A DNA stretch of 64,000 bases, taken from positions 1 through 64,000 of the forward strand of contig DATJTX010000021.1 of assembly GCA_035502855.1 (NCBI GenBank), given 5' to 3'. Position 1 is the first letter of the stretch. Each line of letters begins with the position of its first letter. Shown here in pieces: positions 8,669 through 24,093 of this stretch. A program made the translations under genes and the position numbers. The notes beneath the pieces are model-generated. The model searched no databases. It saw only the letters and a list, made by a program, of their open reading frames with translations, and was not told where the DNA came from. This DNA is from Candidatus Baltobacteraceae bacterium. Its GTDB lineage: Bacteria; Vulcanimicrobiota; Vulcanimicrobiia; Vulcanimicrobiales; Vulcanimicrobiaceae.

Positions 8669-9953
8669 ACTGCCCCAACACGTAGACTAGCGAGAGCAGT
8701 CCGATCACGATCGCGGTCGTCCATGCGATCGCGTTCGCGAGCGGACCGTTCGTGTACGCGCCCATCACCGATTTGCGATTGATGATGATCAGCATCAGCA
8801 CGAGCTCGAACGGAAGCAGCACGCCCTGCAAGAGCTGCGCGAAGAGAATGAATTGCAGCAGCGGGAGGCCGGGGATGAGCACGAACCCGGCGCCCAGCAC
8901 CAAGCCCGCGGCAAAGAGCGTGAAAAAGAGCGGCGCCTCGGAAAAACGGCGGTCGATCGCAGCCTCGAAGCCGAGCGCTTCGCAGACGATGTAGCTGGTC
9001 GAGAGCGGCAATACGGTTGCGGTAAAGAGTCCCGCGTTGAGGATTCCAATCGCAAAAATCAGGGCCGCCGCTTCGCCCGCGAGCGGTTTGAGCGCGACGG
9101 CAAAGTCCATCGCGGTTTGCGGGTTGAGCCTGGCGCCGTGTTCGTTGGCGATGAAGATCGTTGCCGCGTTGGCGATGATCATGAAGCCGGCGAGCGCGAT
9201 CGCGAGAATCGACCCGTTCGTCACGTCGATACGAGTGAACGTCAGATCCTCGGTACGCGATCCCTTTTCGACGACCTGCGACTGCAAGAAGAACTGCATG
9301 TAGGGCGAGATCGTCGTTCCGATGACCGTCACCACCATGGCGAGCCAGCCGGCCTGGTGGAAGGCGAAGTGCGGAATAAACGTGCCGGTTGCCACGCGGT
9401 GCCAATCAGGCTTGGCTAGGACGGCGGAGACGATGTAGCTCAGGTACATCAGCGAGAAGACGACGAAGACACGCTCGACGACTTTGCTGTTGAAGCGCAG
9501 GACGAAGAAGAAGACCGCCACCAGCGCGAGCGGAACTCCGACGTAGCGCGAGATGCCGAAATGTTCGGACGCGGCGGCGATGCCGGCGAATTCGGTCGAC
9601 GTGATCAGCGTGTTGATGAGGAAGAGCACGAGCATGGCAAAGACCGAGATCCGCACGCCGAAGCCCTCGCGAATCAGCGCGGCGAGGCCCTTCCCGGTCA
9701 CGCAGCCCATGCGCGCCGACATCTCCTGCACCACGATCAGCGCGACCGCGAGCGGAACCATCAGCCACAGGATGTCGTAGCCGAACTGTGCCCCCGCCGA
9801 CGAATACGTCGCGATGCCGCCGACGTCGTTGCCGGCCGATGCCGTAACGAAGCCCGGGCCGAGAACCGCGAAGAGCAGAAGGAGGGTACGCCAGGGCGAA
9901 CGGCGTCGCGGCGTTTCCGCCGCAGCGGCCGTGCTAGCCGGCGACGCTTGCAT
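8643..9953 (-). CDS. Nramp-related divalent metal transporter lacking the DPGN motif
   Basis: A 436-residue membrane protein with about eleven predicted helices. The helix 1 region GPGFVTASAGNDVGGIATYS aligns with the Nramp metal site, but canonical DPGN is replaced by GNDVGG. The helix 6 MPH motif is replaced by GTTISPYMQFF. Such replacements are known in Nramp-related magnesium transporters (NRMTs) and allied families that prefer larger hydrated ions or other substrates, so manganese or iron specificity should not be assumed. The gene starts with ATG 9953, inside the last 20 bp of the CBS/MgtE-N gene, so the two are coupled. That neighbour is a probable magnesium sensor, which supports a magnesium-linked role by inference. 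Confidence 0.88.
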   Translation of the reverse strand: MQASPASTAAAAETPRRRSPWRTLLLLFAVLGPGFVTASAGNDVGGIATYSSAGAQFGYDILWLMVPLAVALIVVQEMSARMGCVTGKGLAALIREGFGVRISVFAMLVLFLINTLITSTEFAGIAAASEHFGISRYVGVPLALVAVFFFVLRFNSKVVERVFVVFSLMYLSYIVSAVLAKPDWHRVATGTFIPHFAFHQAGWLAMVVTVIGTTISPYMQFFLQSQVVEKGSRTEDLTFTRIDVTNGSILAIALAGFMIIANAATIFIANEHGARLNPQTAMDFAVALKPLAGEAAALIFAIGILNAGLFTATVLPLSTSYIVCEALGFEAAIDRRFSEAPLFFTLFAAGLVLGAGFVLIPGLPLLQFILFAQLLQGVLLPFELVLMLIIINRKSVMGAYTNGPLANAIAWTTAIVIGLLSLVYVLGQFIPQLLGS

Positions 9954-11241
9954 CCGGCTGACGCGAACGGCGGTGAGCGGTGAATTTGGGAAGTTTACGC
10001 GCGACGTCCTCGGGCATGATCGCGTCGATCGCGTCGTCGACGGTGACGATACCGAGCATCTTGTTCTTCGGATCGACCACCGGCACCGCGAGCAGGTCGT
10101 AGCGCGCGATCGTTGCGGCGACCTCTTCCGAAGGCATGTCGGGATGGATTACCACCAGATCCGTGTCCATGATCGTGTCGATCGATGCCAGCGGATCGGC
10201 CAGCAGCAGCGTACGCAGCGAGAGCGCGCCGAGCAGCGTGTCCTCCTTGTCGACTACGTAGAGGTAGTAGATGAATTCCGAGGTCGGTGCGATCTCGCGA
10301 ATCTTACGGATCGTCGCCTCGGCGGTGCGGTGCGGATAGATCCAGGTGTAATCGGTGGTCATCAGGCCGCCGGCGCTATCTTCGGCATACTTGACCAGCT
10401 CGCGCAGCTCGCTCGCCGTGTACTCGTTCATCTCCGAAAGCAATTCGTGCTGCTGATCTTCGTCGAGCTCGGCGAGCAGATCGGCGGCGTCGTCGGAGTC
10501 CATCTCCTCGATGATGTCGGCAGCGCGTTCGGTGCCGATGTCCTCGATCAGCGAGCGCGCGGTCTCGGCGTCGAGATGCTCGAACGCGTCGGCCGCGGTC
10601 TCGTCGTCGAGTTGACTGACGACCGCTGCCGCCTCGTGGGACGAGAGGTCCCCGATGATCTCGGCCAGCTCGGAGGGGTGCATCCGGGCAAGCTTGCTCT
10701 CGGTGACGGAGAGATTGACTTGCGTCGGATTGACGTCGCGAATCGGCGCGACGGAATCCCATGCGATCATGGAGCGCGGGATCGAGCGGTAAATGGCCGG
10801 CGTGAAGCGCCGGCCGAACGATTTGAGGCCGAGCCGGCGGAAAAGTCCCGCCACGCCGACGTCCGCGGCCACAACCCGCAGCCCCTCTCCGGCGCGGGCG
10901 ATCTCGAGATCGTTGATCCGCACGACCTTGCGGCCGTCGACGTCGACGATCTGCTTATCGAAAAGGTCCGCGATCAGTAATAAGGCGCTCTCCTCAGGGG
11001 GGGCGGGCTCCTTCGGCGTGGTCAAGAGCTCGATGGTGCGCCCGGCCGGATCGATCTGTGCGACGGTCTCGATCGGGGCGTAACGCAGGCCCTGCGAGGT
11101 CTTGATCACGAGGCCGTCGATTCGCGGAAAGACGTCGTCGGGCTTGTTGACCAGGAAGTCGCTGACCCTCCCAATGGGAATGTCGTTGACCGTCGCCTTG
11201 CGGCCGACCAATTCGGAAATGAAGCCTTCGGTGAACGCCAT
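9934..11241 (-). CDS. PRC-barrel, MgtE N-domain and CBS-pair regulatory protein
   Basis: A 435-residue soluble protein. The first part (about 1-170) contains two PRC-barrel-like segments (VNDIPIGRVSDFLV; VVRINDLEIARA). Next is an MgtE N-domain of repeated acidic helices (ELAEIIGDL, DDETAADAFEHL, MDSDDAADLLAEL), then two CBS domains (about 285-415; MTTDYTWIYPHRTAEATI, VTVDDAIDAI). The MgtE channel domain is absent. In MgtE this N/CBS module binds magnesium and gates the pore; here it stands alone and is coupled to an Nramp-related carrier gene by a 20-bp overlap. I infer a cytosolic metal sensor for that carrier. ATG 11241 follows an unusually close ribosome site. Confidence 0.88.
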   Translation of the reverse strand: MAFTEGFISELVGRKATVNDIPIGRVSDFLVNKPDDVFPRIDGLVIKTSQGLRYAPIETVAQIDPAGRTIELLTTPKEPAPPEESALLLIADLFDKQIVDVDGRKVVRINDLEIARAGEGLRVVAADVGVAGLFRRLGLKSFGRRFTPAIYRSIPRSMIAWDSVAPIRDVNPTQVNLSVTESKLARMHPSELAEIIGDLSSHEAAAVVSQLDDETAADAFEHLDAETARSLIEDIGTERAADIIEEMDSDDAADLLAELDEDQQHELLSEMNEYTASELRELVKYAEDSAGGLMTTDYTWIYPHRTAEATIRKIREIAPTSEFIYYLYVVDKEDTLLGALSLRTLLLADPLASIDTIMDTDLVVIHPDMPSEEVAATIARYDLLAVPVVDPKNKMLGIVTVDDAIDAIMPEDVARKLPKFTAHRRSRQPDASVAG

Positions 11242-11284: not shown

Positions 11285-12595
11285 CTATGCGATGAGCGCC
11301 TGGATCAGCAGGGCGGTCATGATCTTGGCGTTGCTTTCGATCTGACTGAGCACTTCGGTGCCCACGCTGGTGAGAATCTGTTCTTGGGTGTACTGAGTGG
11401 TCGCTTGTCCGACGTTGAGATCGGCGAGTTGGCTCACCGATTGCTGGTAGTTGACGATCGCGGTGTTGTCGTCGGTATCGTCGTCGTTCATCGCGACGAT
11501 CTGGGCTCCGATCTGCGCCTCGTTCGTCGTGATCGTCGTGAGCGCATTTTGAACGAGCAATTGGGAGTACGATGCGGAAAAGTTATTGCTCGAACTCGTA
11601 CTGACGTTGAAGTTCGCGTCCTCGACCGTCGGAGCGAGTACTGAGACGTCCGCTAGCCCGAGCGCGCCGGTATTGATGGTTGGAAGCGAGATGCTGAGCG
11701 TATCGCCCTCGTCACCGCCGTCGTTCAAGCTAAGAGCCGTTCCCGTTCCCGCCGGCGCCCCATCGGTCGAAAGGAAAGCCATCGTTACGCCGACGTCGTT
11801 TGGAGAGAGGTTTGCGATCTGGAAATTCTCCATCAGCAAACCGGTGCCGTCGGCGGTCGTGAGTTCCTCGTTCGGCGTTTGGCCGCTGCCGGTCGGTATC
11901 TGGATCGACTGCGAATAGAGCGGCGCGGGTCCAAAGTCGCTGGCGGTGCTGTATGCATCGATTTCGAGCGTCGCCTGCCCTGCACTATACCCCGTGACGG
12001 TGTAGACCATCAACGCCGGTACGAACGTTCCGACGGCGAGCGGAATCGGGGAGAGTCCGGGCGCGATAGCGATCAGCGGTCCCGAGCCGCCGGCGCCGGT
12101 CTCGTTTTCCACCTGCGTCGATCCGCTTCCATAGGGCGATGCGACCTCGGTAAACGTAGGCAGCGAACCGGTCGACGTATCGAATGCTCCATCGAGCAAA
12201 TTCAATCCGTTGAAATTGGTCTTCTCGCCGATCGTGTTGATTTCGGTGAGCAACGATTCGATCTCGGTTTGGATATCCTGAAGGTCTTGCGTCGAGTTGA
12301 TGTCGCTATTTGCTTCGACGATCAGGTTGTTGATGCGGACCAGAATGTTCTGGACCGAGCCGAGAGCGCCGTTGGCAACATTGAGCGCGTTGATGCCGTT
12401 CTGCACGTTGTTCACGGCTTGCTGGAGACCGTTCACTTTGCTCGTGAGATTGGTAGCGATCGCGTTGCCGCTGGGGTCGTCGGCTGCGCTGTTGATGCGC
12501 AGCCCCGACGAGAGCTGCTGGACCGTCTTTTCGAACGCTAGCTGATTTCGATCGAGGTTCAGCAGTACGTCATCCGCTCCGATTTGTAGGTTCAT
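11285..12595 (-). CDS. fliC: Flagellin
   Basis: A 436-residue flagellin. The conserved N-terminal D0/D1 helix region is clear (QQLSSGLRINSAADDPSGNA at about 27-46, then GLQQAVNNVQNGINALNVANGAL), as is the conserved C-terminal coil (about 370-436; NYQQSVSQLADLNVGQATTQYTQEQIL). The central variable part (about 145-330) is Ser/Thr/Gly-rich and would be surface exposed. The last residues (IMTALLIQALIA) differ from the usual LLAQANQ-type ending. No other flagellar gene lies in the window, so the export apparatus must be encoded elsewhere. ATG 12595 has GGGAG about eight bases upstream. It is divergent from the large surface-protein operon. Confidence 0.92.
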   Translation of the reverse strand: MNLQIGADDVLLNLDRNQLAFEKTVQQLSSGLRINSAADDPSGNAIATNLTSKVNGLQQAVNNVQNGINALNVANGALGSVQNILVRINNLIVEANSDINSTQDLQDIQTEIESLLTEINTIGEKTNFNGLNLLDGAFDTSTGSLPTFTEVASPYGSGSTQVENETGAGGSGPLIAIAPGLSPIPLAVGTFVPALMVYTVTGYSAGQATLEIDAYSTASDFGPAPLYSQSIQIPTGSGQTPNEELTTADGTGLLMENFQIANLSPNDVGVTMAFLSTDGAPAGTGTALSLNDGGDEGDTLSISLPTINTGALGLADVSVLAPTVEDANFNVSTSSSNNFSASYSQLLVQNALTTITTNEAQIGAQIVAMNDDDTDDNTAIVNYQQSVSQLADLNVGQATTQYTQEQILTSVGTEVLSQIESNAKIMTALLIQALIA

Positions 12596-12998: not shown

Positions 12999-15900
12999 AT
13001 GGGTCGCCTTCTTCAAATTGTCGGTTGCGTGCTTATGCTCGCCGCCATGGGCGTTGCTTTGGGCCGAAGCAGCCAGGCGGATGCCGACATTTTGGCACCC
13101 TTGGGACGGGCGATCGTGCTGGCCGAGGCACAGCTCGCCCAGGCGACCCCCTCTCCCCACGCCTACGAGCCGTCGCCGACCCCCTCGGCGAGCGGGCTCA
13201 TCCTACCGAACGCAACGCCGACCCCGGGCAAAGAGGAAACGATTCGCGGCGGTCCGGTCCGCTTTTCATTAAATGGAAGCCTCTCGCTGGGCGAGCGTTC
13301 GGCGACCCAGACGCTCAATGGCACGGGCGGCCTGTCACCGACGCCGACGCCGACCGCATCGGGTTCGCCTTCACCCTTCATCGGGCCGGGCGGCGCGACG
13401 ATATCGACGCAGAACCAAGCCATCACCGGCGTCGGGCTCTTTGCCGAGCTCGACCGTCGGACCGCGCTCACCTCCACCGACGTCAAGGTCCCCTTTGCGT
13501 TCAGTAGCGGCGGCCAGGGCTTGATCGGTGCTACAACGGTGCTCTACTCGACGCCGAAATACGGGCTCGGTTACGGTCCCACACCGCTCACCCTTCTGGG
13601 GCAGCTCCCGGTAGGGAGCACGATCCGCAGCTATTACGGGATTCTTCCCACCCATAACGGCGAGACGACCTTTTACGAAGGACCGACGATCGGCGCGCAG
13701 GGCGAGGAGATTCCGATCGAGGGTATGCAGTGGCGCGAGTCCGCGGGCAACAGTATCTATGAGGGAGGACTGGTGTACGGCGACGGCCCGTTCACCGGCA
13801 AGAGCGAAACGGCTATCTTCGGTGACGCGGTCTCGCTCGGACCTCTCACCGCAATCGGCGAAGGTGCCTACCAAACGCGTAGCGGCGGCGATCAGGACGC
13901 ATCCGGTTTGAGTTATCAGTTCCGCGCCGACGACGGCAACACCAATACCTACCTGACCGGCATCCTGCGGCACATCAGCGACGGCTTCGTCTCCTTCGGG
14001 GACGGCGAGATTTACGGCGACGATTATTTTTCGCTCGCCTATCATCGCGCGACCGCGTTGCAGAATTTCACGTTCAACGCGAGCACGGAACAGGCGGGCG
14101 CACTCGACGGGCCGCCGCTGCTCGATCGCATCGGCGCGCTCGCCTATAACGGGCCGCTCCGCTTCGGCGGCTACTCGATTTCCCTGCAGTCGCAGCGAAC
14201 GGGTGAGTCCGGTTCGACGTCGTCGCTCGAGCAAGGCTCGACGCAGATCTCGGCGACCATCGGTAAAGGCGTGCTCCTGGTCGGCGATCTGCTCTCGCGC
14301 ACCACCACGCAGATCGACGGAGACGAAAGTCAGGCGGGCTACAACGCAGAGCTGCAACTCCCGTTTCGCAGCGTGGTCGCCGGGCTCAGCTTCAATAACA
14401 CCCGATTGACCTCGCAAGAGTCCGGAACGTCGCTCACCACCAGCGAAGGCCTGAATCTCAGCCGCTCGTTCGGCAAGGCCGCGATCACCCTCTCGGATAT
14501 CTTTGCCCACGCACAGAGCGACATCTCCGATGCGTTGACGACAAACCTCTCGGTTGCCGTTTCGCGCGCCATATCGCCGGTGATTTCCGTACAGGCTCTC
14601 TTCGGCGTGCAGAGCTTGAACGACCGAATCAACCCGGTCGATAACGGGCGCTCGAAAAACTTCGCCATCCAGATCAACGCGCCGTTCAGTTACGGCAACG
14701 GCGTCGTCACCGGTCGCGCCGATCCGCGACTGCCGGCGACGATCGTCGGACGCGTCTTGACCGACACGTCCGCCAACCCGACATTCGCGGGCATCGCAAG
14801 CGGCGGCGTCGCCAACGTGGAGGTGATTCTCGACGATAAATCCGTCCAGCGCACCGACGTAAGCGGAAACTTCCAGTTCTCCTTCGTGACGCCGGGTCAA
14901 CATCAGTTGAGCATCGAGAACTCCTCACTGCCGCGCGGCGTCACCGTGAACATCCCCGTCAACACGATTCAAGTGGCAGGCGGCCAAACCGCGCAAGTGA
15001 CGTTCTTGGTCGGAACGTACGGCGGAATCACCGGCCACGTCTACGGACGCAACGATGCGGGCACCATCGTCCCATTACCCAATGTATTGGTTCGCGTGGA
15101 CGGCGCCACGTACTCGCAAACCGATAAGACGGGCGCCTACGGGTTCGGGCGGTTGCGGCCCGGGAAGCATACGGTCAGCGTGGTCGAGAATTCGGTGCCG
15201 GCGTTCGCGACCTTCGATTCGGCCAACGACAAACAGACGGTCGACGTGCAGAACGGGCAATACGCGACCGTCGACTTTACCGCATTACCGCTCGGCTCGA
15301 TCTCGGGTTCGATCCTCTTCGGCAGCGACATGGGGTACGGTCCCTCCGTCGGCGTTCCAAACGCGTATGTGGTGGCCGAACCCGGCGAACATGCGGCGAT
15401 CGACAACGACGACGGAAGCTTCGTCATCGACGACCTCCCGCCCGGTGATTACACGGTATCGGTCGATCCCGAAACCGTACCCGAGGGGCTGGGCATCGAG
15501 CCGGACAGCATTGCAATTACTTTACAATCGCAGGAGCATTACCAAGGCGCGGCGTTCGTCGTCGGTCACACGGAGAAGAAGGTGACGTTCTCCTTCGTCG
15601 GCGGCGGCGTGAGCGCGGCCAGCGCGCCCAGGACGCGCCTGAGCGAGTCGCGTCTTCCGCCGCGCGGGTACACCACCGTGACCGTAGACGCGCCGAAGAG
15701 CGCCGGCCTCGTGAGCCTCGAGCTCTTCGGCGAGCACGTCGCGTTTACGTACGACGACAAGGCGGCGGTGTGGAGCGGCGCGATCACCGTGCCGACCAGC
15801 GTCAAAGGCGGCTCGTATGCCGTTTCGACAAAAGTAGAAAACGGGACGCAGCCGCAGCCGGCTACGCTGACCGTCGACCCGAAGATGCCGCTCGCGATAC

Positions 15901-16130
15901 TGCAAACCGAGCCGTCCAATCCGCAGATCGGAGCGTACGTGCGCGTACGAGCACGATTCTTAGTGGATGCGCGGCCGGGCGACCACATCGTATGGGCCGA
16001 TGGGCAAATCACGACACTGGGCAAACCGATCGCCGGTCGCGTCTTTACATTTAGTATACGTTTTTCTTTACGCCCGCTGCACGGAGTCCTACGTGCGCAG
16101 GGAGCAAGCTTGCCGATAAGTCTTATGTAA
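12999..16130 (+). CDS. Large secreted usher-like outer-membrane protein with CarboxypepD-reg-like repeats
   Basis: A 1043-residue secreted protein and the first gene of the surface operon. Residues 1-27 form a signal peptide (MGRLLQIVGCVLMLAAMGVALG). A Pro/Ser/Thr-rich low-complexity linker follows (about 45-130, TPSPHAYEPSPTPSAS and similar). About 140-560 consists of short alternating polar/hydrophobic strands, as expected for a large beta-barrel. Then come three Ig/carboxypeptidase-regulatory-like repeats at about 580-660, 675-760 and 767-850, each with a TDxxGxFxF-like core and a final xxLPxG or VPxxx; a last beta domain runs to the end. Usher proteins of some chaperone-usher classes carry comparable C-terminal Ig repeats, but I cannot prove homology. 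AAGGAG at 12989-12994 supports ATG 12999. The gap to the next gene is 54 bp. Confidence 0.7.
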   Translation: MGRLLQIVGCVLMLAAMGVALGRSSQADADILAPLGRAIVLAEAQLAQATPSPHAYEPSPTPSASGLILPNATPTPGKEETIRGGPVRFSLNGSLSLGERSATQTLNGTGGLSPTPTPTASGSPSPFIGPGGATISTQNQAITGVGLFAELDRRTALTSTDVKVPFAFSSGGQGLIGATTVLYSTPKYGLGYGPTPLTLLGQLPVGSTIRSYYGILPTHNGETTFYEGPTIGAQGEEIPIEGMQWRESAGNSIYEGGLVYGDGPFTGKSETAIFGDAVSLGPLTAIGEGAYQTRSGGDQDASGLSYQFRADDGNTNTYLTGILRHISDGFVSFGDGEIYGDDYFSLAYHRATALQNFTFNASTEQAGALDGPPLLDRIGALAYNGPLRFGGYSISLQSQRTGESGSTSSLEQGSTQISATIGKGVLLVGDLLSRTTTQIDGDESQAGYNAELQLPFRSVVAGLSFNNTRLTSQESGTSLTTSEGLNLSRSFGKAAITLSDIFAHAQSDISDALTTNLSVAVSRAISPVISVQALFGVQSLNDRINPVDNGRSKNFAIQINAPFSYGNGVVTGRADPRLPATIVGRVLTDTSANPTFAGIASGGVANVEVILDDKSVQRTDVSGNFQFSFVTPGQHQLSIENSSLPRGVTVNIPVNTIQVAGGQTAQVTFLVGTYGGITGHVYGRNDAGTIVPLPNVLVRVDGATYSQTDKTGAYGFGRLRPGKHTVSVVENSVPAFATFDSANDKQTVDVQNGQYATVDFTALPLGSISGSILFGSDMGYGPSVGVPNAYVVAEPGEHAAIDNDDGSFVIDDLPPGDYTVSVDPETVPEGLGIEPDSIAITLQSQEHYQGAAFVVGHTEKKVTFSFVGGGVSAASAPRTRLSESRLPPRGYTTVTVDAPKSAGLVSLELFGEHVAFTYDDKAAVWSGAITVPTSVKGGSYAVSTKVENGTQPQPATLTVDPKMPLAILQTEPSNPQIGAYVRVRARFLVDARPGDHIVWADGQITTLGKPIAGRVFTFSIRFSLRPLHGVLRAQGASLPISLM

Positions 16131-16184
16131 CTGGCTCACCTCTCTGCCACGGACGGCAAAACTCTCGCGCATGGTGAAAGGAAA

Positions 16185-16889
16185 ATGATTACTAAACGCA
16201 TTGCTGCGCTCGCTGCCCTGAGCGCAATCATCTCGATGGCGGCGCCGGCAATGGCCGCGGCCCCGACCATCACGGTCAAGTGGAACACCCAGACGATCTC
16301 GACGTTCGTCGTTACGACTCAGGCGAGCGCCGCGGAAACGCACTCCGGCACCGCCGAAAACATCTACTGGGGCGGCAACGGCAGCACGTCCAGCGGCTGC
16401 GCCGGCACCACCGATACGGCGTCGGCCGGAACCGATAACTCGGCGAACGGGACCGTCAACTTCGGCAGCGTCACGCCCGACGCGGCCGACTACACCGACT
16501 GTCTCGAGGTCAACGCGGTGAACGCGTACGTCGCCACCAACGACTCGAACGGCTACAACGTCACGGTTCAAGCCACGAGCGCGGTGCCCAGCAACTACGC
16601 TGCGGCCGCAAACGGCGCGTACCTCTGCCTCCTGCCGAACGGCACGTGGGCGAACAACCTCGCCTACACGGCATCGACCCGTAACGCTGCGGTTGCCATC
16701 ACGAGCACGACCGCTTGCCCGGCCGGCGACTTCGGTGTCGCAAGCTCGGCCGCGACGACGCTGCTCGCCGAGACGGCTTCGACCGCCGCGACGAACATTC
16801 CGCAGGACATGGAGCTGGTGCTCGGTCCGAACGCCTCGTCCACGGGCCAGGTCGCGATGGTCGTGACCTATACCCTGACCACCCTCTAA
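16185..16889 (+). CDS. Secreted subunit-like protein, candidate major fibre subunit
   Basis: A 234-residue protein with a clear signal peptide (MITKRIAALAALSAIISMAAPAMA) and a Thr/Ser/Ala/Asn-rich beta-sandwich-like mature region. Two internal features recur in other genes of this operon: TVNFGSV near residue 92, and VATNDSNGYNVTV near 120. The C-terminus is VVTYTLTTL, with Tyr sixth from the end and Gly fourteenth from the end, echoing the C-terminal strand of chaperone-usher pilins. AAAGGA precedes ATG 16185 by two to three bases. Its place directly before a strong intercistronic hairpin and its uniform GC-rich codons suggest the most abundant product of the operon. No named family is recognised. 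Confidence 0.72.
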   Translation: MITKRIAALAALSAIISMAAPAMAAAPTITVKWNTQTISTFVVTTQASAAETHSGTAENIYWGGNGSTSSGCAGTTDTASAGTDNSANGTVNFGSVTPDAADYTDCLEVNAVNAYVATNDSNGYNVTVQATSAVPSNYAAAANGAYLCLLPNGTWANNLAYTASTRNAAVAITSTTACPAGDFGVASSAATTLLAETASTAATNIPQDMELVLGPNASSTGQVAMVVTYTLTTL

Positions 16890-16909
16890 AGAAGAAGGAA
16901 CCATGACCG

Positions 16910-16945
16910 CTTCGTCGCGGGACTCCAGGGAGTTCCGCGACGAAG
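16910..16945 (+). promoter_or_regulatory. Strong intercistronic RNA hairpin after the first subunit gene
   Basis: Bases 16910-16925 pair with 16930-16945 as a continuous 16-bp stem (one G-U pair) with the tetraloop CAGG. No T-run follows, so it is not a standard terminator. A hairpin just downstream of a major subunit gene commonly stabilises the upstream mRNA segment or limits read-through in fimbrial operons; that function here is inference. If the chaperone-like gene began at ATG 16903 the hairpin would lie inside its coding region, which is one reason to prefer the ATG at 16954. Confidence 0.75.
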
Positions 16946-16953
16946 GGGCCAGG

Positions 16954-17757
16954 ATGATGCAGCAGCTGATACGACGCTCCGCCCTACTGGCATGCCTGAT
17001 CGCGCTCTTCGGAGCCTTGACGGCAACGGCGGACTCCCTGGATCTCGGTATGACGGTAACACCGGGTAAGTTCGAAGCCTCGATACCGCTCGGTACGACC
17101 TACAACATACCGGTCACGGTGGCGAACACGGCGGCAACCCCGCTCCACGTGCTGGCCTCGATGACCGACTTCGGAGTCGCGGAGAACGGCGATTACCAAT
17201 TCGAAAAGGTTGGTACCCGTCCGTACTCGCTGCTCAGGTGGGCGGCGATCCGTCCGCGCGAATTCGATCTCCCGCCGGGAACCTCGCAACAGGTGCAGCT
17301 CACGATTTCGATTCCCTCGGATGCGCAGCTCAACGGCGAGTACGCCGGCATCATCTTCTTCCAAACCCGGCCCGAGCGTCGGGCCGGAACGGGATACGCG
17401 TTCTCCGAGCGCGTCGCATCGAAATTCTACATCACCATTCCGAATACGGTGAAGGTGGACGGTGCGATCGTCAAGATGACGAGTGTGAAGGGAGGCGGTG
17501 ACGAGATTTACCGCGTGCTCTTCAAGAACATTGGAAATGCCCATGAATATCTGCGCGGTCAGTTGACGGTGCAGAAGGGCGGAGCGGTCGTGTACCAAGT
17601 GCCGATGCCCGACAATATGTTGGTCGAGCGCGGCGGTGAACGATTGATCGAACTGAAGGGCAAGGGTCTGGAACCCGGCACCTATCAGGCGATCGCCACG
17701 ATCGATTACGGTGGTAAAACGGAGACCGGCGGCGAGATCAACTTTGACGTTCGCTAG
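16954..17757 (+). CDS. Periplasmic chaperone-like Ig-fold protein
   Basis: A 267-residue secreted protein with the signal peptide MMQQLIRRSALLACLIALFGALTATA. The first mature domain (about 30-155) has the order expected for a PapD/DUF916-like Ig domain: MTVTPGKFEASIPLG, then IPVTVANTAATPLHV, RPREFDLPPGTSQQVQLTI and LNGEYAGIIFF. A second beta domain follows (FYITIPNTVKVDGAI, FKNIGNAHEYLRGQLTV, LEPGTYQAIATIDYGG). These patterns match periplasmic fimbrial or surface-protein chaperones in outline, but catalytic-type identifiers do not exist, so this is a fold-level call. ATG 16954 has AAGGGG five bases upstream; an alternative ATG at 16903 has AAGGA upstream but would put a 16-bp hairpin in the gene. 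It lacks the shared YT-x-C-terminus of its neighbours, which fits a chaperone rather than a subunit. Confidence 0.68.
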   Translation: MMQQLIRRSALLACLIALFGALTATADSLDLGMTVTPGKFEASIPLGTTYNIPVTVANTAATPLHVLASMTDFGVAENGDYQFEKVGTRPYSLLRWAAIRPREFDLPPGTSQQVQLTISIPSDAQLNGEYAGIIFFQTRPERRAGTGYAFSERVASKFYITIPNTVKVDGAIVKMTSVKGGGDEIYRVLFKNIGNAHEYLRGQLTVQKGGAVVYQVPMPDNMLVERGGERLIELKGKGLEPGTYQAIATIDYGGKTETGGEINFDVR

Positions 17758-17803
17758 TCGGTAACTAAACTGACACAGGGAGCGTGTAGGAACTACACTG
17801 GCG

Positions 17804-18481
17804 ATGAAACGGTATCTTTTGGGAGCACTCGGCCTAGCCTTCGCGATACTCGCGGCGCTGGCGGCCTTCTCCCCGGCCATCGCCCAGAGTAGCGCGACCG
17901 GCTCGGTCAGCACGAAGTGGCATACGACGGCTCTGATCGACTTCACGCTGACGCCGAACTACTACACGGGTTACGGCGCAGTGCCGGCCGAGTTCGGCAC
18001 GCAGCCGGCTCCGACACACGGCCCCTACGCCACCGGCGTCGGCGCCGGCAGCGTCGATTTCGGCACCACGCTGGCCGGCAAGACGTACTTGTACAAGTAC
18101 GCGGCGCACCTACACGTCACCAGCAACGATGCGGCGGGATTCTTCATCTACGGCGAAGCGGCGATCAACATCACCAACAGCACGGACGGAACTACCTACC
18201 CGGTCTCGCAAGCGTTGTTTTATCTTCCCAGCGGCGCAACGTCGGATTCCAACACGGGCTTCAGTCCCGGGTTCCCTTTTCAGTTGACCAGCGGCGCGGT
18301 TAGCGGCGGCACGTATAGCACCCCCCCGACGATCGCGTACACGACGTATCCGCCGCCGATCGCAAGCTCGAACACGGACGACGGCGATTACTACTACGAC
18401 TACGAGTTCAAAGTGCCGAGCGACGCTACCGCCGGCAACGTATACTACGTGTGGATCGTCTACACGGTGATCGGACAATGA
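17804..18481 (+). CDS. Secreted subunit-like protein with SVDFG motif and YTV C-terminus
   Basis: A 225-residue secreted protein with a signal peptide ending near AFSPAIAQS. It shares with the 16185 protein and the C-terminal part of the giant an xVDFG motif (GSVDFGTTLAG, about residue 83), then HVTSNDAAGFFIYGEA. The C-terminus is YYVWIVYTVIGQ: Tyr sixth from the end and Gly fifteenth from the end. This suggests a minor or alternative fibre subunit handled by the same chaperone. The final TGA overlaps the ATG of the next gene (ATGA). No database family is recognised by eye. Confidence 0.7.
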   Translation: MKRYLLGALGLAFAILAALAAFSPAIAQSSATGSVSTKWHTTALIDFTLTPNYYTGYGAVPAEFGTQPAPTHGPYATGVGAGSVDFGTTLAGKTYLYKYAAHLHVTSNDAAGFFIYGEAAINITNSTDGTTYPVSQALFYLPSGATSDSNTGFSPGFPFQLTSGAVSGGTYSTPPTIAYTTYPPPIASSNTDDGDYYYDYEFKVPSDATAGNVYYVWIVYTVIGQ

Positions 18482-19188
18482 AATACTTCAAACTGTCGCT
18501 CGCTGCCGTTGGGCTCTTGATCCTTAGCCTCGTCCTGCTGCAGCCGGTGAAAGCCGGCCTCTCGTCGCAGCAGGCACAGATCGGCGTCACCATCGTCGTG
18601 ATCGTTTCACCGACGCCTCTCGCCTACAACGAACGATCCACCACGACGGTCGCGCAGGCTCCGGTAATCACGTCATCGATGTCACTGGATCGCGCGACCC
18701 CCGCCCTCAAACACGTATTCGACGCACAGAGCCTCCAGTTCGAACAAACCTCGTCGCTCGTCGTGGCGCAGGTGCAGCATCCGCTGCTCGTTCAGGCCGC
18801 GGTATCGCCCAATCCGAACGCGACGCTGCTGACGTCGAACAATACCGAAGTCGTGATCAACGCGAGCCCGGGGACGACCCTGCAAGTGCCTTGTGCGTTT
18901 ACCGTCACGGTGTCGACGACCACGAGCTGGTCGCTCGACGAGGGGCTTACGAACGACTTCTCGTCGAGCTTTCCGGGCAAGGACTTGGCCAACAACACGT
19001 ACGCGAGCACGCCGCTGCCGACGTCGACGCCCTACCTCGTCTATGCCGACGACGGCAGTGCATGGTCGCTCTTGGCAAGCGGCTCGAAAATCACGACCTA
19101 CTGCGTAACACTCACCGTGACGGTGCCGGCGTCCGTCACCGCCGGGACGTATAGTTCGAATGCGATCTATACGCTGTTCATGAGCTGA
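18478..19188 (+). CDS. Secreted subunit-like protein with YTL C-terminus
   Basis: A 236-residue secreted protein. Residues 1-27 (MKYFKLSLAAVGLLILSLVLLQPVKAG) form the signal peptide. The mature part is Ser/Thr/Val-rich beta sequence with two cysteines (about 141 and 204) that may pair. It ends NAIYTLFMS, so Tyr is sixth and Gly fourteenth from the C-terminus, as in the 16185 protein, but it lacks the DFG motif. ATG 18478 overlaps the preceding stop (ATGA), and its TGA shares a base with the ATG of the giant gene (TGATG). A longer frame from 18451 is less likely because it would add residues before a perfect signal peptide. Confidence 0.7.
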   Translation: MKYFKLSLAAVGLLILSLVLLQPVKAGLSSQQAQIGVTIVVIVSPTPLAYNERSTTTVAQAPVITSSMSLDRATPALKHVFDAQSLQFEQTSSLVVAQVQHPLLVQAAVSPNPNATLLTSNNTEVVINASPGTTLQVPCAFTVTVSTTTSWSLDEGLTNDFSSSFPGKDLANNTYASTPLPTSTPYLVYADDGSAWSLLASGSKITTYCVTLTVTVPASVTAGTYSSNAIYTLFMS

Positions 19189-22100
19189 TGCGAATTGCTC
19201 CTTCCGCGTGGGTGTTTGCGATCGTCTCGTTCGTCGCCGTAGCAACGGCGGCATTTGCCGATCCGCGGCTTGGGGTCGCTCCCGTCGCGCCGGTTCATCC
19301 GGTTCCCGTCGCAAGCGCGGTGCTTGCGCCGGCGCGAGCGATGGCGACCATGCCGCCGAACGGTGCGTACGTCGGTGCTGTGCCGCCCGGAACGGTCGTA
19401 CCCCTTTCGCGTCTGCCGCGGTTGCCGATGCGCACGTCGATGAACACGGTGACACCGAAGGGGCTCAAAGCCGGGCATTTCCATATCATGGCGGCCAGCG
19501 GTGCGACGATCGACATCACCGGCACGTCCTGCGGCGGCGCGCTCGGCGATATCTTCCCGGTGGATTGCACGATAACGTGGCAGGCGATCAACCTGCCCGC
19601 CACCGACAGCAAACAAGATTACTACATCGCGGCGGAAAACGGCAACGAGCTGACCAGCAGCGCAACCGCGGTTGGCACAACGGGGAGAAGGCCGGAGGAT
19701 CCGTACACCGCTACAACGGGCCCTTCGAACACGACGGAAATGACCGAGGACGGAACCTACATCTTCGGCACCTACGACGTCACCAAGTCCGAGTGGATCG
19801 CGGTCGTTTACGTCAATGCCGGCCAGGTCTTTACGCTCGAGGTCTTTTCGGACCCATACCACTCCTCTCAGACCTACCAGTTCGACGCCGCCGACAGCCC
19901 CGATGCGTACATTTATCTGCAGAACGTGGCGCAATCGGATTACTACGTCGTGGGCGTCCACGAAACCGGCGTCAATCCGAACTGCATCTTCATGGCGCCG
20001 GTTCCGACGCCGTCGCCGTACACCTACAGCTCGAGCCAGCTTTGCGATTTGACCGCGTCCTCCGGCGTTCAGGCGCCGGGCGGCGATCTCTCCGTCACCT
20101 GGCCGATCAGTTCGAGCGATCCGGCGGGCAATTATTCGGTCGAGGTGTACGATCTCACCCAGGGTCAGCGCCTGGGACAGGTGCAGGTCTCGCTAACGGG
20201 CTCGACCGGCATCGTGCTCGCGTCGTATCCCGATGATTCCGGAGCGAACTCGAACCCCTCACCGGCTCCGCCGATCGCCGCGACGCCGTCGACGATCCTT
20301 GCGTGGGATGGCGGCGCCGCGCCGGGACCCGCCGACGAATCGGTGACCGGCATCAAGACCACGGTCTCGGGATTGCAAAACGGCACCAATTACTTGTGGA
20401 CGCTCTCCGATCCGCAAGGCCAGGTCGTCGGCACGGCAAACGGCACGATTACGGGCAGCGACGGATCGAACATCTTCACCTTCGACGATCTCTCGGGCGG
20501 CGCAGGCCAATCGTATATCGAACCTCCCGGCCGGTATCCCGCGAAATCGTGGGTGGTGCAGCTCTACAACACCACGAGCAAGACGGTCAGCGCGTCGCAA
20601 TCGTTCCAGATTCTCGGCTACTCGACCTCGACGCAGTTCAACGCGAGCGGAACGCTCGAAACCTCGATGGCGCTCACGCCGGGCGGCACGGCGGTCGATG
20701 CCGGACTGCGGATCACCAACGCGAGCAGCACGGTGTTCAACGGCTACGGCGACAACCTGGCCAAGGTCTCGTTCTCCAGCGGCAACGACTTCAATCCGAG
20801 CGGAGGCGGCAGCGGAAACGGCATCATGGTCGGTACCAGCGCGACCGCGCCGTGCAGTACGGTGTGCAGCACGACGGGAACCGACGAGAACGGTAACACC
20901 TGGCCGGTCACGATTACGTGCAGCACCACCACGTTGACGACGTCAGGCGAATGTACGATCGAAGCCGACGCGCCATCCGGCGGATCCGTCTTTCTGACGC
21001 CGGGCGAATACGTCGAGGTTGATGGGCTCTACTGGTTCGACGCCGCCGCGAGCACGTGCGGCAATTCGTGCCAGGGTCTCACCTCGGAATTGCCGCAGCA
21101 CGGCTTGCATTGGTCGTGCATCTATGGACAGGGATCCTGTCCATCGGACACGCTTGCGTGGGTTCCGGTCTATTTCCGCAACGCCAGCGCGACGGCTTCC
21201 GGGACTGCAAGCTTCGCGATCATCGGATCGTACAACGAGTCTGCGCTCAACGATCTTGCCTCGCCCTACACGCCGCCGTTCGTCAACGCGCATTGGTTCC
21301 AGGACTACTTCGAGCAGGCGGATTACGCCGAAACCTCACCTTACGACAGTCCGATCGGCGCGGTGGGCGACTACGGCGGTACCAACATGGACGTCGACGC
21401 GCTCACGATCACGAACTCGACCGACACCAACAACATCACCGAAGTCGCCGTCGTCTATCCGCCGGTGCTGCATGATCAAAGCTGGCTCGCGCTTCCGGGC
21501 GGCAACGGATGGGGCTTTGCGACCTGCCCGAACAACTTCCGCGCGGCGACGATCTGCTACGACGGCGGGAATATCGCCAAAGGTAAGAGCGACACGATCA
21601 CGATCTACCAGACGCCGACGCTGCAAAGCTTCCCGTTCCAAGACCTGCAAGTGCTCGCCTACGACGGCTCGCAGTGGTTCCAGCTGACGCCCGCCTCGGA
21701 AAGCATTTCCACCCCCGACGGCCTCTATACGAATCTCGACGCCCTTTCGGTTGGACAGTATTCGCTCATTGCCAACGACATGACCGCGTACTTCGACCCG
21801 GACACGGTTGGGAACGGCTCGACGGCGACGCTCGGGTTCGTCTACACCAATACCTCGACGGCGGTGGATGCCAATCCGGATTCGATCGACGCGCTCGTTC
21901 TCGAAGCGCCCTCGACCGGCTATACGCTCAGCACGACGGGAATGACGATCAGTGCTCCGGGTTGGAGCTATCTCGGTGCCTACAAGCCGAACGGCGCGAC
22001 GACCACGCAGTACTGGTTCGGTCTGTGCGCGACGCAATTCACCAATGGCTCGAACACCGGGACGTACAGCGGTCCGCCGACCGCAAGCGGCGGCCCCGGT

Positions 22101-23318
22101 TTCCCGCTGACCGCGAAGTATCCCACCCTCGGCAACCCCGCAACATGCGGAACCGAGCACGACGCGATCAAACCGGGCGGCTCGATCACGGTCTCGGGCC
22201 TCTCGTTCTCGAACTTCAACACGAACGGTACGCTGACGTGGTACATGTACGCCCATGGCATCAACGGTGGCGGATGGTCCGATAAACAGACGATGTCGCT
22301 CGCCGTCGCCTCCGCGTCCGCGTCGGTCTGGTTCAACGAGGTCGACGGAACCGCCGTCGCGTCGAATACGACGCCCACGATCGGCAGCAGCCCCAACGAC
22401 TACCAGTACGCGATCGAAAACACGAGCAAGAGCACCAACATCACCTCGATTGCAATCACGCTGCCCGGTACCGACATCAACGGGCAGAACGCGTACGACG
22501 GCACGAATTATTGGGAGATCCCGAATATCGATACCGCCGGAACGATCACGCTTACCTATGCGGGCGCGAACAATCCGACGTGCACCGTCAACACGACGGC
22601 GGCCGACACCTACAACGCCACGTCGGGCGGGGCGAACGGCCAGATCTACATCACGTGCACCAATTTCAAGGCCGGCTACACCCTCTACGTGAACTTCCCG
22701 GCGACCAAGACGATGACCAACCCGGAGGAGGAGAGCGACAGCTACGTCTTCCCCGCGACGATCAACGGCACGACCGCGGCCGGAACGGCGTGGCTCGGCA
22801 GCGACGAGATCAACGAGCAGTTCAGCATCGGGCTCGACGTGGTCGTAGACCCGTCGAATCCGGGGCCGGGCGGTTCGACCCCGGTGGTCAACTGCGGCAA
22901 TACCTGTGCCTTCTCGGGCAACACGATCGACTTCGGCAATATCGCGAACAATCAGAGCTTCACGTTCCAAGACGTCGTGCGCGCCAGCATGTACTATACG
23001 GGTACGACCTCTTCCGGACACAATCTCGATCTCTACGTCGAAGCGAATGCGAATCCGACCAACACCTCAGGCTCGCCGACGAACGAGTTGCAGACCGAGG
23101 TCGACCAGTCGCATTCCACCAGCGCGACCGGCATGTCGTTCCTGACGACCGCCTATACGGTGGTGCCTACCTCGACGATGCTCGAGCTGGCAACGGCGCC
23201 GGAGACCTACAGCTCGACGCCGTACGACATCATCAACAGCTACGAGGTCTCGATCGGGCCGAGTGATCCGATCACCGCTCAGATCATCACGCTAACGTAT
23301 ACGTTGATTGCGAATTAA
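19188..23318 (+). CDS. Giant secreted protein, candidate tip adhesin
   Basis: A 1376-residue secreted protein; the signal peptide is MRIAPSAWVFAIVSFVAVATAAFA. The rest is almost entirely Thr/Ser/Gly/Asn-rich beta sequence with cysteine pairs (CSTVCSTTG, CGNSC, CGNTC), consistent with a string of beta-sandwich domains stabilised by disulfides. Near residue 1248 a segment GNTIDFGNIANNQSFTFQ begins a C-terminal domain that resembles the small subunits (DFG motif, then SSGHNLDLYVEA) and ends ITLTYTLIAN, with Tyr again sixth from the end. A large, last-encoded protein sharing the subunit C-terminus is what a fibre-tip adhesin would look like. It starts on TGATG with the previous gene. Ligand and named family are unknown. 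Confidence 0.72.
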   Translation: MRIAPSAWVFAIVSFVAVATAAFADPRLGVAPVAPVHPVPVASAVLAPARAMATMPPNGAYVGAVPPGTVVPLSRLPRLPMRTSMNTVTPKGLKAGHFHIMAASGATIDITGTSCGGALGDIFPVDCTITWQAINLPATDSKQDYYIAAENGNELTSSATAVGTTGRRPEDPYTATTGPSNTTEMTEDGTYIFGTYDVTKSEWIAVVYVNAGQVFTLEVFSDPYHSSQTYQFDAADSPDAYIYLQNVAQSDYYVVGVHETGVNPNCIFMAPVPTPSPYTYSSSQLCDLTASSGVQAPGGDLSVTWPISSSDPAGNYSVEVYDLTQGQRLGQVQVSLTGSTGIVLASYPDDSGANSNPSPAPPIAATPSTILAWDGGAAPGPADESVTGIKTTVSGLQNGTNYLWTLSDPQGQVVGTANGTITGSDGSNIFTFDDLSGGAGQSYIEPPGRYPAKSWVVQLYNTTSKTVSASQSFQILGYSTSTQFNASGTLETSMALTPGGTAVDAGLRITNASSTVFNGYGDNLAKVSFSSGNDFNPSGGGSGNGIMVGTSATAPCSTVCSTTGTDENGNTWPVTITCSTTTLTTSGECTIEADAPSGGSVFLTPGEYVEVDGLYWFDAAASTCGNSCQGLTSELPQHGLHWSCIYGQGSCPSDTLAWVPVYFRNASATASGTASFAIIGSYNESALNDLASPYTPPFVNAHWFQDYFEQADYAETSPYDSPIGAVGDYGGTNMDVDALTITNSTDTNNITEVAVVYPPVLHDQSWLALPGGNGWGFATCPNNFRAATICYDGGNIAKGKSDTITIYQTPTLQSFPFQDLQVLAYDGSQWFQLTPASESISTPDGLYTNLDALSVGQYSLIANDMTAYFDPDTVGNGSTATLGFVYTNTSTAVDANPDSIDALVLEAPSTGYTLSTTGMTISAPGWSYLGAYKPNGATTTQYWFGLCATQFTNGSNTGTYSGPPTASGGPGFPLTAKYPTLGNPATCGTEHDAIKPGGSITVSGLSFSNFNTNGTLTWYMYAHGINGGGWSDKQTMSLAVASASASVWFNEVDGTAVASNTTPTIGSSPNDYQYAIENTSKSTNITSIAITLPGTDINGQNAYDGTNYWEIPNIDTAGTITLTYAGANNPTCTVNTTAADTYNATSGGANGQIYITCTNFKAGYTLYVNFPATKTMTNPEEESDSYVFPATINGTTAAGTAWLGSDEINEQFSIGLDVVVDPSNPGPGGSTPVVNCGNTCAFSGNTIDFGNIANNQSFTFQDVVRASMYYTGTTSSGHNLDLYVEANANPTNTSGSPTNELQTEVDQSHSTSATGMSFLTTAYTVVPTSTMLELATAPETYSSTPYDIINSYEVSIGPSDPITAQIITLTYTLIAN

Positions 23319-24093
23319 TCCTCTGACTACCGCCCTCGCGGCCGCGCGCGAGGGCGCGGCGGCGCTGCTCGAGCACGCGCATTTGCCGCTCGAGATCCGC
23401 GAGAAGGGCCGCCGGGCAGACCTCGTGACCGCCGCCGATCGCGCCAGCGAACGCGTGGTGATCGCGCGCTTGCGGGCCGATTTTCCGCACGCCGCGATCC
23501 TGGCCGAAGAGAGCGGCAGCGCGCCCGGTACCAGCGACGAGCGCTGGATCGTCGACCCGCTCGACGGCACCACGAACTACGCGCACGGCTATCCGGTCTA
23601 CAGCATCTCGATCGCCTACGAGCGCGGCGGCGAATTGCTTGCCGGTATCGTGTACGCTCCGGCACTCGGTGAGTGTTTTGCCGCCGAACACGGCGGCGGC
23701 GCGCGTCTGAACGACCGGCCGATCGCGGTCTCGAGAATCGATCGCGTCGGCGACGCACTGCTCTGCACCGGCTTTCATCCGGCGGATTTCGAACGCAACG
23801 CGGACTTCTTCGCACGTGTGTCGGCGCGCGCGCAAGGCGTGCGGCGCGACGGATCGGCGGCGCTGGATTTAGCATTCACCGCGTGCGGGCGTTTCGACGG
23901 GTTTTGGGAATTCGACTTGAGTCCGTGGGACGTTGCCGCCGGCACCCTGCTGGTGCGCGAAGCGGGCGGATCGGTCAGCCGTGTCGACGGTGGTCCGAGC
24001 GCGCTCGATGCGCGCAGCATTCTCGCCAGCAACGGCCGAATCCACGCCGAACTGCAGGGCGTGCTCGCGGACGGAGATAAGCAGAGGCCATGA
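23308..24093 (+). CDS. Inositol-monophosphatase-family phosphatase
   Basis: A 261-residue enzyme of the magnesium-dependent, lithium-sensitive phosphatase family (inositol monophosphatase, SuhB, CysQ, histidinol-phosphatase types). The metal-binding motif WIVDPLDGTTNYAHG lies near 81-95 and the second motif WDVAAGTLLVREAGG near 202-216; an EES acid site (LAEESGS) precedes them. The exact substrate cannot be told. The start is TTG 23308, which overlaps the end of the giant gene by 11 bp and lacks a clear ribosome site. Its stop overlaps the DUF4383 gene as ATGA. It seems functionally unrelated to the surface operon despite the overlap. Confidence 0.87.
   Translation: MRINPLTTALAAAREGAAALLEHAHLPLEIREKGRRADLVTAADRASERVVIARLRADFPHAAILAEESGSAPGTSDERWIVDPLDGTTNYAHGYPVYSISIAYERGGELLAGIVYAPALGECFAAEHGGGARLNDRPIAVSRIDRVGDALLCTGFHPADFERNADFFARVSARAQGVRRDGSAALDLAFTACGRFDGFWEFDLSPWDVAAGTLLVREAGGSVSRVDGGPSALDARSILASNGRIHAELQGVLADGDKQRP

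What the first reader, a model, noticed from the sequence alone, without database searches (positions are those of the whole stretch)
12999..23318. Possible new chaperone-usher-like surface fibre operon
Six consecutive secreted-protein genes with tight spacing encode, in order, a 1043-residue beta-barrel/Ig-repeat protein (usher-like), a small subunit-like protein, a chaperone-like two-domain Ig protein, two more small secreted proteins and a 1376-residue giant. Each of the six has a signal peptide. The arrangement assembly platform, major subunit, chaperone, minor subunits, tip adhesin mirrors chaperone-usher fimbrial loci, yet no protein matches a recognised pilin or usher family by eye. The chaperone-usher assignment is inference from fold-like patterns and order.
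Basis: partly seen in the sequence, partly recalled or inferred. Interest (0 to 1): 0.85.

Follow-up and report, generated by a model that had tools for sequence, protein, structure and literature searches.

The report
Divergent chaperone-usher-like surface operon
A six-gene operon, conserved across the little-known bacterial phylum Eremiobacterota, appears to build and export a surface structure in the way bacteria build chaperone-usher pili, but with a rebuilt outer-membrane gate and a chaperone that also resembles a Gram-positive surface-protein family not previously connected with pili.

Summary
Six adjacent + strand genes (12999-23318), each with a signal peptide, form an operon conserved in gene content across Eremiobacterota.

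P1 (1043 aa): predicted outer-membrane barrel of about 24 strands, followed by two domains homologous to the C-terminal domains of archaic ushers. It lacks the usher N-terminal domain and plug, has extra C-terminal domains, and has no Pfam usher match.

P3 (267 aa): profile homologue, across both domains, of archaic chaperone-usher chaperones (E 8e-8, signal peptides removed) and of the WxL-interacting protein (WxLIP) of Gram-positive WxL clusters (E 7e-10). I found no paper connecting those two families.

P2 and P4: paralogous small subunits. A confident model of P4 (pLDDT 90) finds mostly donor-strand pilins as its best, but weak, matches.

P6 (1376 aa): ends in a P2-like domain, like a tip adhesin.

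The same genome has a separate usher of the known family, so this is a second system. Best reading: a divergent chaperone-usher-type surface-assembly system. Polymerisation into a fibre is not shown. New variant of a known kind.

The parts
12999..16130 (+). P1: outer-membrane assembly-platform candidate (signal peptide; Pro-rich linker; barrel about residues 87-560; two usher-type C-terminal domains 571-762; a third transthyretin-like domain to about 860; two further Ig-like domains 878-1042)
   Evidence: AlphaFold2 pLDDT 77.5; Foldseek FimD/PapC best among barrel proteins; CTD1-2 vs archaic ushers E 9e-8; CarboxypepD_reg Pfam hits
16185..16889 (+). P2: small secreted subunit, paralogue of P4
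   Evidence: P2 vs P4 profiles E 1e-18, or 2e-14 without signal peptides; conserved cysteines
16954..17757 (+). P3: two-domain periplasmic chaperone (archaic chaperone-usher chaperone / WxLIP homologue)
   Evidence: hhalign vs archaic chaperones and WxLIP; Pfam WxLIP_PGBD in 28 of 29 orthologues at E <= 0.1, window member below the curated cut-off
17804..18481 (+). P4: small secreted subunit with a pilin-like beta-sandwich model and no strand in the N-terminal mature segment (about residues 30-44)
   Evidence: AlphaFold2 pLDDT 90, pTM 0.77; top Foldseek matches mostly chaperone-usher pilins, E 0.02-0.3
18478..19188 (+). P5: third small secreted protein; only its C-terminal strand resembles P2/P4
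19188..23318 (+). P6: 1376-aa giant, candidate tip adhesin / surface effector, with a C-terminal P2-like subunit domain (about residues 1240-1376)
   Evidence: P6 C-terminus vs P2 E 4e-8, ending at both C-termini; column-shuffle control 0 of 39

Best explanation
The operon encodes a divergent chaperone-usher-type surface-assembly system. Inferred mechanism: the subunits P2, P4, probably P5, and the giant P6 (through its C-terminal subunit domain) cross the inner membrane by Sec. P3, a two-Ig-domain chaperone, caps each subunit's incomplete sandwich in the periplasm. The 24-stranded P1 barrel in the outer membrane takes the chaperone-subunit complexes through its periplasmic C-terminal domains. 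P6 is exported first as the tip, and subunits follow by donor-strand exchange through their N-terminal extensions. Supported by computation: secreted operon, conserved synteny, predicted barrel, homology of P1's first two C-terminal domains to usher C-terminal domains, homology of P3 to chaperone-usher chaperones and WxLIP, P2-like end of P6, P2-P4 paralogy. Inferred only: donor-strand chemistry, polymerisation, order of export, adhesive function.
For: P1: barrel model of about 24 strands. Foldseek gives FimD/PapC E 2e-12 to 3e-8 at probability 1.0, ahead of LptD and porins at 1e-5 to 1e-3. Residues 571-762 match archaic-usher C-termini over 159 columns, E 9e-8, beat all 39 column shuffles, and TonB-type CarboxypepD_reg domains from the same genome (alignment made) do not give that match in the 210-pair matrix. 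P3: vs archaic chaperones E 1.5e-8, or 7.6e-8 over 202 columns without signal peptides; vs E. coli PapD-type chaperones E 4e-6, weaker (7e-5) when trimmed. The proline that PMC4654587 calls the only invariant residue of the chaperone-usher superfamily most likely corresponds to P103, present in all 29 orthologues. P4: model pLDDT 90; by my count about 29 of the top 50 PDB matches are chaperone-usher pilins (Caf1, CfaB, SafA, CsuA/B, FimA/G, HdaB), with a Sulfolobus filament and uromodulin/ZP filaments also present. P6: C-terminal subunit domain. Synteny. The cultured relative Vulcanimicrobium is a Gram-negative diderm with LPS (PMC9758169).
Against: No Pfam usher, PapD or pilin match. Pfam ushers in the phylum all lie at other loci. 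P1 lacks the usher N-terminal domain and a plug-sized insertion. Barrel-to-barrel sequence similarity is weak, E 5e-4 to 1e-3. Foldseek TM-scores for P1 are low (0.2-0.35 against ushers), pTM is 0.51, and an Ig-repeat protein is actually rank 1, so the ranking mixes barrel and Ig-domain signal. No P4 match reaches E 0.001, and glycosidase domains are among its top hits. Subunits show no sequence homology to any pilin family. The position most likely equivalent to the carboxylate-anchoring Arg89 of archaic chaperones is not Arg in P3 (I135). No complex prediction was possible, and P3 itself was not modelled.
Confidence: 0.65

Rival explanations
1. A Gram-negative counterpart of the Gram-positive WxL cluster: P3 is a WxLIP-like binding partner that stabilises small (P2, P4, P5) and large (P6) surface proteins as a static complex, and P1 is merely their outer-membrane anchor or porin; no usher function, no polymer.
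For: P3 is slightly closer to WxLIP than to archaic chaperones (E 7e-10 vs 8e-8); Pfam WxLIP_PGBD in 28 of 29 orthologues; gene order small - WxLIP - giant with a C-terminal subunit domain parallels WxL clusters; WxLIP is proposed to insert a strand into WxL (PMC10599100), and a solved WxLIP-long WxL complex exists (9i25, named).
Against: The subunits do not match WxL domains by profile; no Pfam WxL match anywhere in the genome; P3 ends after domain 2 without the C-terminal transmembrane helix described for WxLIP; P1 carries usher-type C-terminal domains; P4 finds pilins.
Confidence: 0.2
2. An ordinary archaic chaperone-usher locus that has merely drifted beyond Pfam detection, with the usual mechanism in all details.
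For: P3 and P1 C-terminal-domain homology to archaic systems; comparable organisation of subunits, chaperone, barrel protein and large adhesin.
Against: P1 lacks an N-terminal domain and plug and has extra C-terminal domains; the likely archaic anchoring Arg is not conserved; subunits do not match spore-coat-U pilins; standard ushers coexist at separate loci in several of the same genomes.
Confidence: 0.1
3. P1 is a porin-like or other outer-membrane protein unrelated in function to the secreted proteins; the operon is a collection of adhesins.
For: Porins and LptD also match the barrel at 1e-5 to 1e-3; low TM-scores; CarboxypepD_reg domains are common in other large proteins of this genome.
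Against: P1 is always next to P2/P3 where contigs allow; the order barrel then two usher-type domains is specific and survives controls.
Confidence: 0.05

Closest known systems
Archaic (Csu-type) chaperone-usher pathway
   Same: Two-domain chaperone homologous over its length; barrel followed by homologous C-terminal domains; small secreted subunits; large protein with a C-terminal subunit domain
   Different: No Pfam usher or PapD match; P1 without N-terminal domain or plug and with five rather than two C-terminal domains; subunits not of the spore-coat-U family; likely archaic anchoring Arg not conserved; giant of 1376 aa
WxL / WxLIP (DUF916-DUF3324) surface cluster of Bacillota
   Same: P3 homologous to WxLIP over both domains; order small subunit - WxLIP-like - giant; giant ends in a subunit-type domain
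   Different: Outer-membrane barrel added; no WxL match in the subunits; P3 without the transmembrane helix; diderm envelope
'Type II' P3-like operons of the same phylum (L040, L041, L043, L044)
   Same: Chaperone of the same family (P3 vs type II E 1e-29); OM protein whose C-terminus resembles P1's transthyretin-like domains (E 4e-10)
   Different: Smaller OM protein (712-778 aa), different subunits of about 170-210 aa, no P6-like giant recognised
Usher locus in the same genome (C21, about 82-85 kb, L053)
   Same: Outer-membrane usher system in the same cell
   Different: Clear PF00577 usher of 758 aa and a PapD_N-like partner; unrelated in position

Membership tests
Chaperone-usher pathway | Usher recognised by Pfam PF00577 | tested here: not met
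   no Usher hit for P1; Usher hits lie elsewhere
Chaperone-usher pathway | Usher barrel of 24 strands | tested here: met
   24 strands counted at 87-560 in the AlphaFold2 model, the first two of low confidence
Chaperone-usher pathway | Usher N-terminal periplasmic domain | tested here: not met
   Residues 20-83 are mostly low-confidence and Pro-rich; no match to the archaic usher N-terminal segment
Chaperone-usher pathway | Plug domain inserted in the barrel | tested here: not met
   Longest stretch between confident barrel strands is about 41 residues (170-210), smaller than a plug
Chaperone-usher pathway | Usher C-terminal domains directly after the barrel | tested here: met
   P1 571-762 vs archaic usher C-terminus E 9e-8, TonB-domain and shuffle controls passed
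Chaperone-usher pathway | Chaperone homologous over both Ig domains | tested here: met
   E 7.6e-8, 202 columns without signal peptides. PapD Pfam models not matched
Chaperone-usher pathway | Superfamily-invariant proline of the chaperone | tested here: met
   P103 in 29 of 29 aligns with the invariant Pro of archaic chaperones (feature from PMC4654587; that this column is CsuC Pro59 is inference)
Chaperone-usher pathway | Archaic/alternative carboxylate-anchoring Arg (CsuC Arg89) | tested here: not met
   Invariant Arg of the aligned archaic set maps to I135; identifying that column with Arg89 is inference
Chaperone-usher pathway | Subunits: incomplete Ig fold with N-terminal donor segment | tested here: inconclusive
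   P4 model pLDDT 90 with no strand in its N-terminal mature segment; pilins dominate the matches but none has E <= 0.001
Chaperone-usher pathway | Tip adhesin with C-terminal pilin domain | tested here: met
   P6 C-terminus vs P2 E 4e-8; adhesion itself untested
Chaperone-usher pathway | Donor-strand exchange and fibre on the cell | not testable with these tools
   Needs complex prediction or experiment
WxL cluster | WxL domain with dual WxL motif | tested here: not met
   No Pfam WxL match in the genome; profile comparisons not significant
WxL cluster | WxLIP two-domain protein | tested here: inconclusive
   Profile homology E 7e-10 and PF06030 in 28 of 29 at E <= 0.1, but the window protein is below the curated cut-off
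WxL cluster | C-terminal transmembrane helix on WxLIP | tested here: not met
   P3 ends ...GGEINFDVR directly after domain 2 (sequence; feature from PMC10599100)

The most novel reading that the evidence does not exclude
This system is a living intermediate: the chaperone of diderm chaperone-usher pili and the WxLIP of Gram-positive WxL clusters descend from one ancestral module (chaperone, donor-strand-completed subunits, giant adhesin with a C-terminal subunit domain), which was coupled to an outer-membrane usher in diderms and to the cell wall in monoderms.
Probability: 0.35. Interest if true: 0.85.

Novelty: new variant of a known kind. Interest (0 to 1): 0.66.

Why it matters
It would extend chaperone-usher-type assembly to a minimal or rearranged usher, without an N-terminal domain and plug, that coexists with standard ushers; that makes testable which usher domains are indispensable for pilus biogenesis. 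The chaperone connects two families that I found treated only separately, archaic chaperone-usher chaperones and Gram-positive WxLIP. That suggests a common origin for surface assembly on both sides of the monoderm-diderm divide, and a chaperone/donor-strand mechanism for WxL clusters.

Tried and rejected
Single-sequence and profile searches of P3 and P1 against PDB sequences gave only weak hits. Pfam/NCBIfam on all six proteins named no system. WxL domain identity of the subunits was rejected. Sequence homology of the subunits to FimA-type or spore-coat-U pilins was rejected once signal peptides were removed. P1 barrel-to-usher barrel sequence homology is not significant by E-value although it beats shuffles, which could be generic barrel alternation. 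A P3 structure was not predicted because both AlphaFold2 jobs went to P1 and P4.
Full report
OBSERVATION. Six + strand genes lie head to tail at 12999-23318: P1 1043 aa, P2 234, P3 267 (start at 16954), P4 225, P5 236, P6 1376. Each begins with an evident signal peptide; P4/P5/P6 overlap by 1-4 nt. The window is C21:1-64000 of a 3.33 Mb genome. P3 homologues occur in 45 of 148 genomes of the phylum sample and in 22 of 70 genera. Gene calling around them shows the P1-P2-P3-P4-P5-P6 set again and again, sometimes with P6 directly after P3 (P1-P2-P3-P6-P4-P5). In an independent collection, 31 loci came back; those whose titles name a group are Eremiobacterota/WPS-2, and P1 accompanies P3 in 28. 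The operon is real and conserved.

P1. Pfam sees only CarboxypepD_reg-type repeats. AlphaFold2 on a 27-sequence alignment (pLDDT 77.5, pTM 0.51) predicts a barrel from about 87 to 560 with 24 long strands (the first two of low confidence), followed by transthyretin-like and Ig-like domains. There is no N-terminal periplasmic domain and no plug-sized insertion. Foldseek against the PDB puts FimD/PapC ushers ahead of every other barrel (E 2e-12 to 3e-8; LptD and porins 1e-5 to 1e-3), but TM-scores are low and an Ig-repeat protein is rank 1, so Ig domains contribute. The specific evidence is in sequence profiles: residues 571-762 match the C-terminal part of archaic ushers over 159 columns. In an all-against-all comparison of 21 profiles (210 pairs) this pair scores E 9e-8, whereas TonB-type CarboxypepD_reg domains from the same genome, which do match P1's own repeats, do not match the usher C-terminus. 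The real score (52.8) exceeds 39 column shuffles (maximum 20.3) and the reversed alignment (12.3). The barrels themselves show only weak similarity.

P3. Pfam's WxLIP_PGBD (DUF916) is found in 28 of 29 orthologues at E <= 0.1, below the curated cut-off for the window member; PapD models are not found. Profile comparison matches P3 over both domains to three sets assembled here from annotated records: archaic chaperone-usher chaperones (E 1.5e-8; 7.6e-8 without signal peptides), WxLIP (6.7e-11; 7.2e-10) and E. coli PapD-type chaperones (4e-6; 7e-5). WxLIP against archaic chaperones directly is weaker (1.7e-5; 1.8e-4), so P3 lies between them. Seven of 16 mappable invariant archaic positions carry the same residue in P3, including the proline that most likely is the superfamily-invariant one; the probable Arg89 anchor is not conserved. 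My literature searches found no paper connecting WxL clusters with chaperone-usher systems; the library is limited to open-licence papers.

SUBUNITS. P2 and P4 are paralogues (E 1e-18; 2e-14 without signal peptides). P5 shares only the C-terminal strand. The last ~130 residues of P6 match P2 (E 4e-8, ending at both C-termini; shuffles 0 of 39). P4, modelled with P2 and P4 relatives, gives pLDDT 90 and pTM 0.77; its N-terminal mature segment forms no strand. Its PDB matches are weak (best E 0.02, none <= 0.001), but by my count about 29 of the first 50 are chaperone-usher pilins, with uromodulin/ZP and Sulfolobus filaments also present. Glycoside hydrolase family 123 domains also appear near the top. 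Subunits have no detectable sequence homology to known pilins or to WxL.

CONTEXT. The genome also carries a Pfam-recognised usher with a PapD_N-like partner at C21 about 82-85 kb. Ushers occur in 23 of 148 phylum genomes, all at loci other than this operon; eight sampled genomes carry both. The phylum has a second, smaller kind of operon with a P3-like chaperone. A cultured member of the phylum has an outer membrane with LPS (PMC9758169), as an outer-membrane platform requires.

MECHANISM. Supported by computation: secretion of all six, conserved linkage, predicted barrel, homologous usher C-terminal domains, chaperone homology, subunit-type end of the giant. Inferred: P3 completes subunits by donor-strand complementation, P1 accepts them through its C-terminal domains (since the N-terminal domain that does this in FimD is missing), P6 leads as tip, and P2/P4 polymerise. 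WxLIP has been proposed to insert a strand into WxL (PMC10599100), the same type of contact.

VERDICT. It works like a chaperone-usher system (0.65), but it is not a standard member: usher Pfam match, N-terminal domain, plug and the probable archaic anchor Arg were tested and not met. It is best filed as a new variant. The chaperone's double affinity to archaic chaperones and WxLIP is the most interesting point; common descent of the two surface systems is possible but unproven.

Noticed in passing
window 11285-12595 (-): A flagellin gene (Flagellin_N E 8e-35) is divergently placed next to P1 and a homologue is present in 22 relatives' loci; the genome has four Flagellin_N genes and two FHIPEP export genes. 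Why a flagellin should travel with this operon is unexplained.
   Followed up: partly
L053:8244-11011 (G000 C21 about 82.2-85.0 kb, outside the window): Separate minimal usher locus: a 758-aa Pfam usher preceded by a 164-aa ORF with a PapD_N match only; no subunit gene recognised beside it.
   Followed up: partly
L040, L041, L043, L044: A second kind of P3-like operon: several 170-210 aa subunits, a chaperone, and a 712-778 aa protein with a weak Cu_amine_oxidN-like N-terminus and a P1-like C-terminus.
   Followed up: partly
L069:8993-18243: Rearranged copy with two P3 genes, a giant and a 980-aa P1-type protein downstream instead of upstream.
   Followed up: no
L046:8280-11632 (-): A second P1-like (877 aa) and P3-like pair in a same-genus genome (G120), with stronger SdrD_B/CarboxypepD_reg repeats.
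   Followed up: no
window 9934-11241 (-) and 23308-24093 (+): Flanking MgtE_N/CBS protein and inositol-monophosphatase-like gene are also retained beside the operon in many relatives (17 and 12 loci); the IMPase function is by eye.
   Followed up: partly
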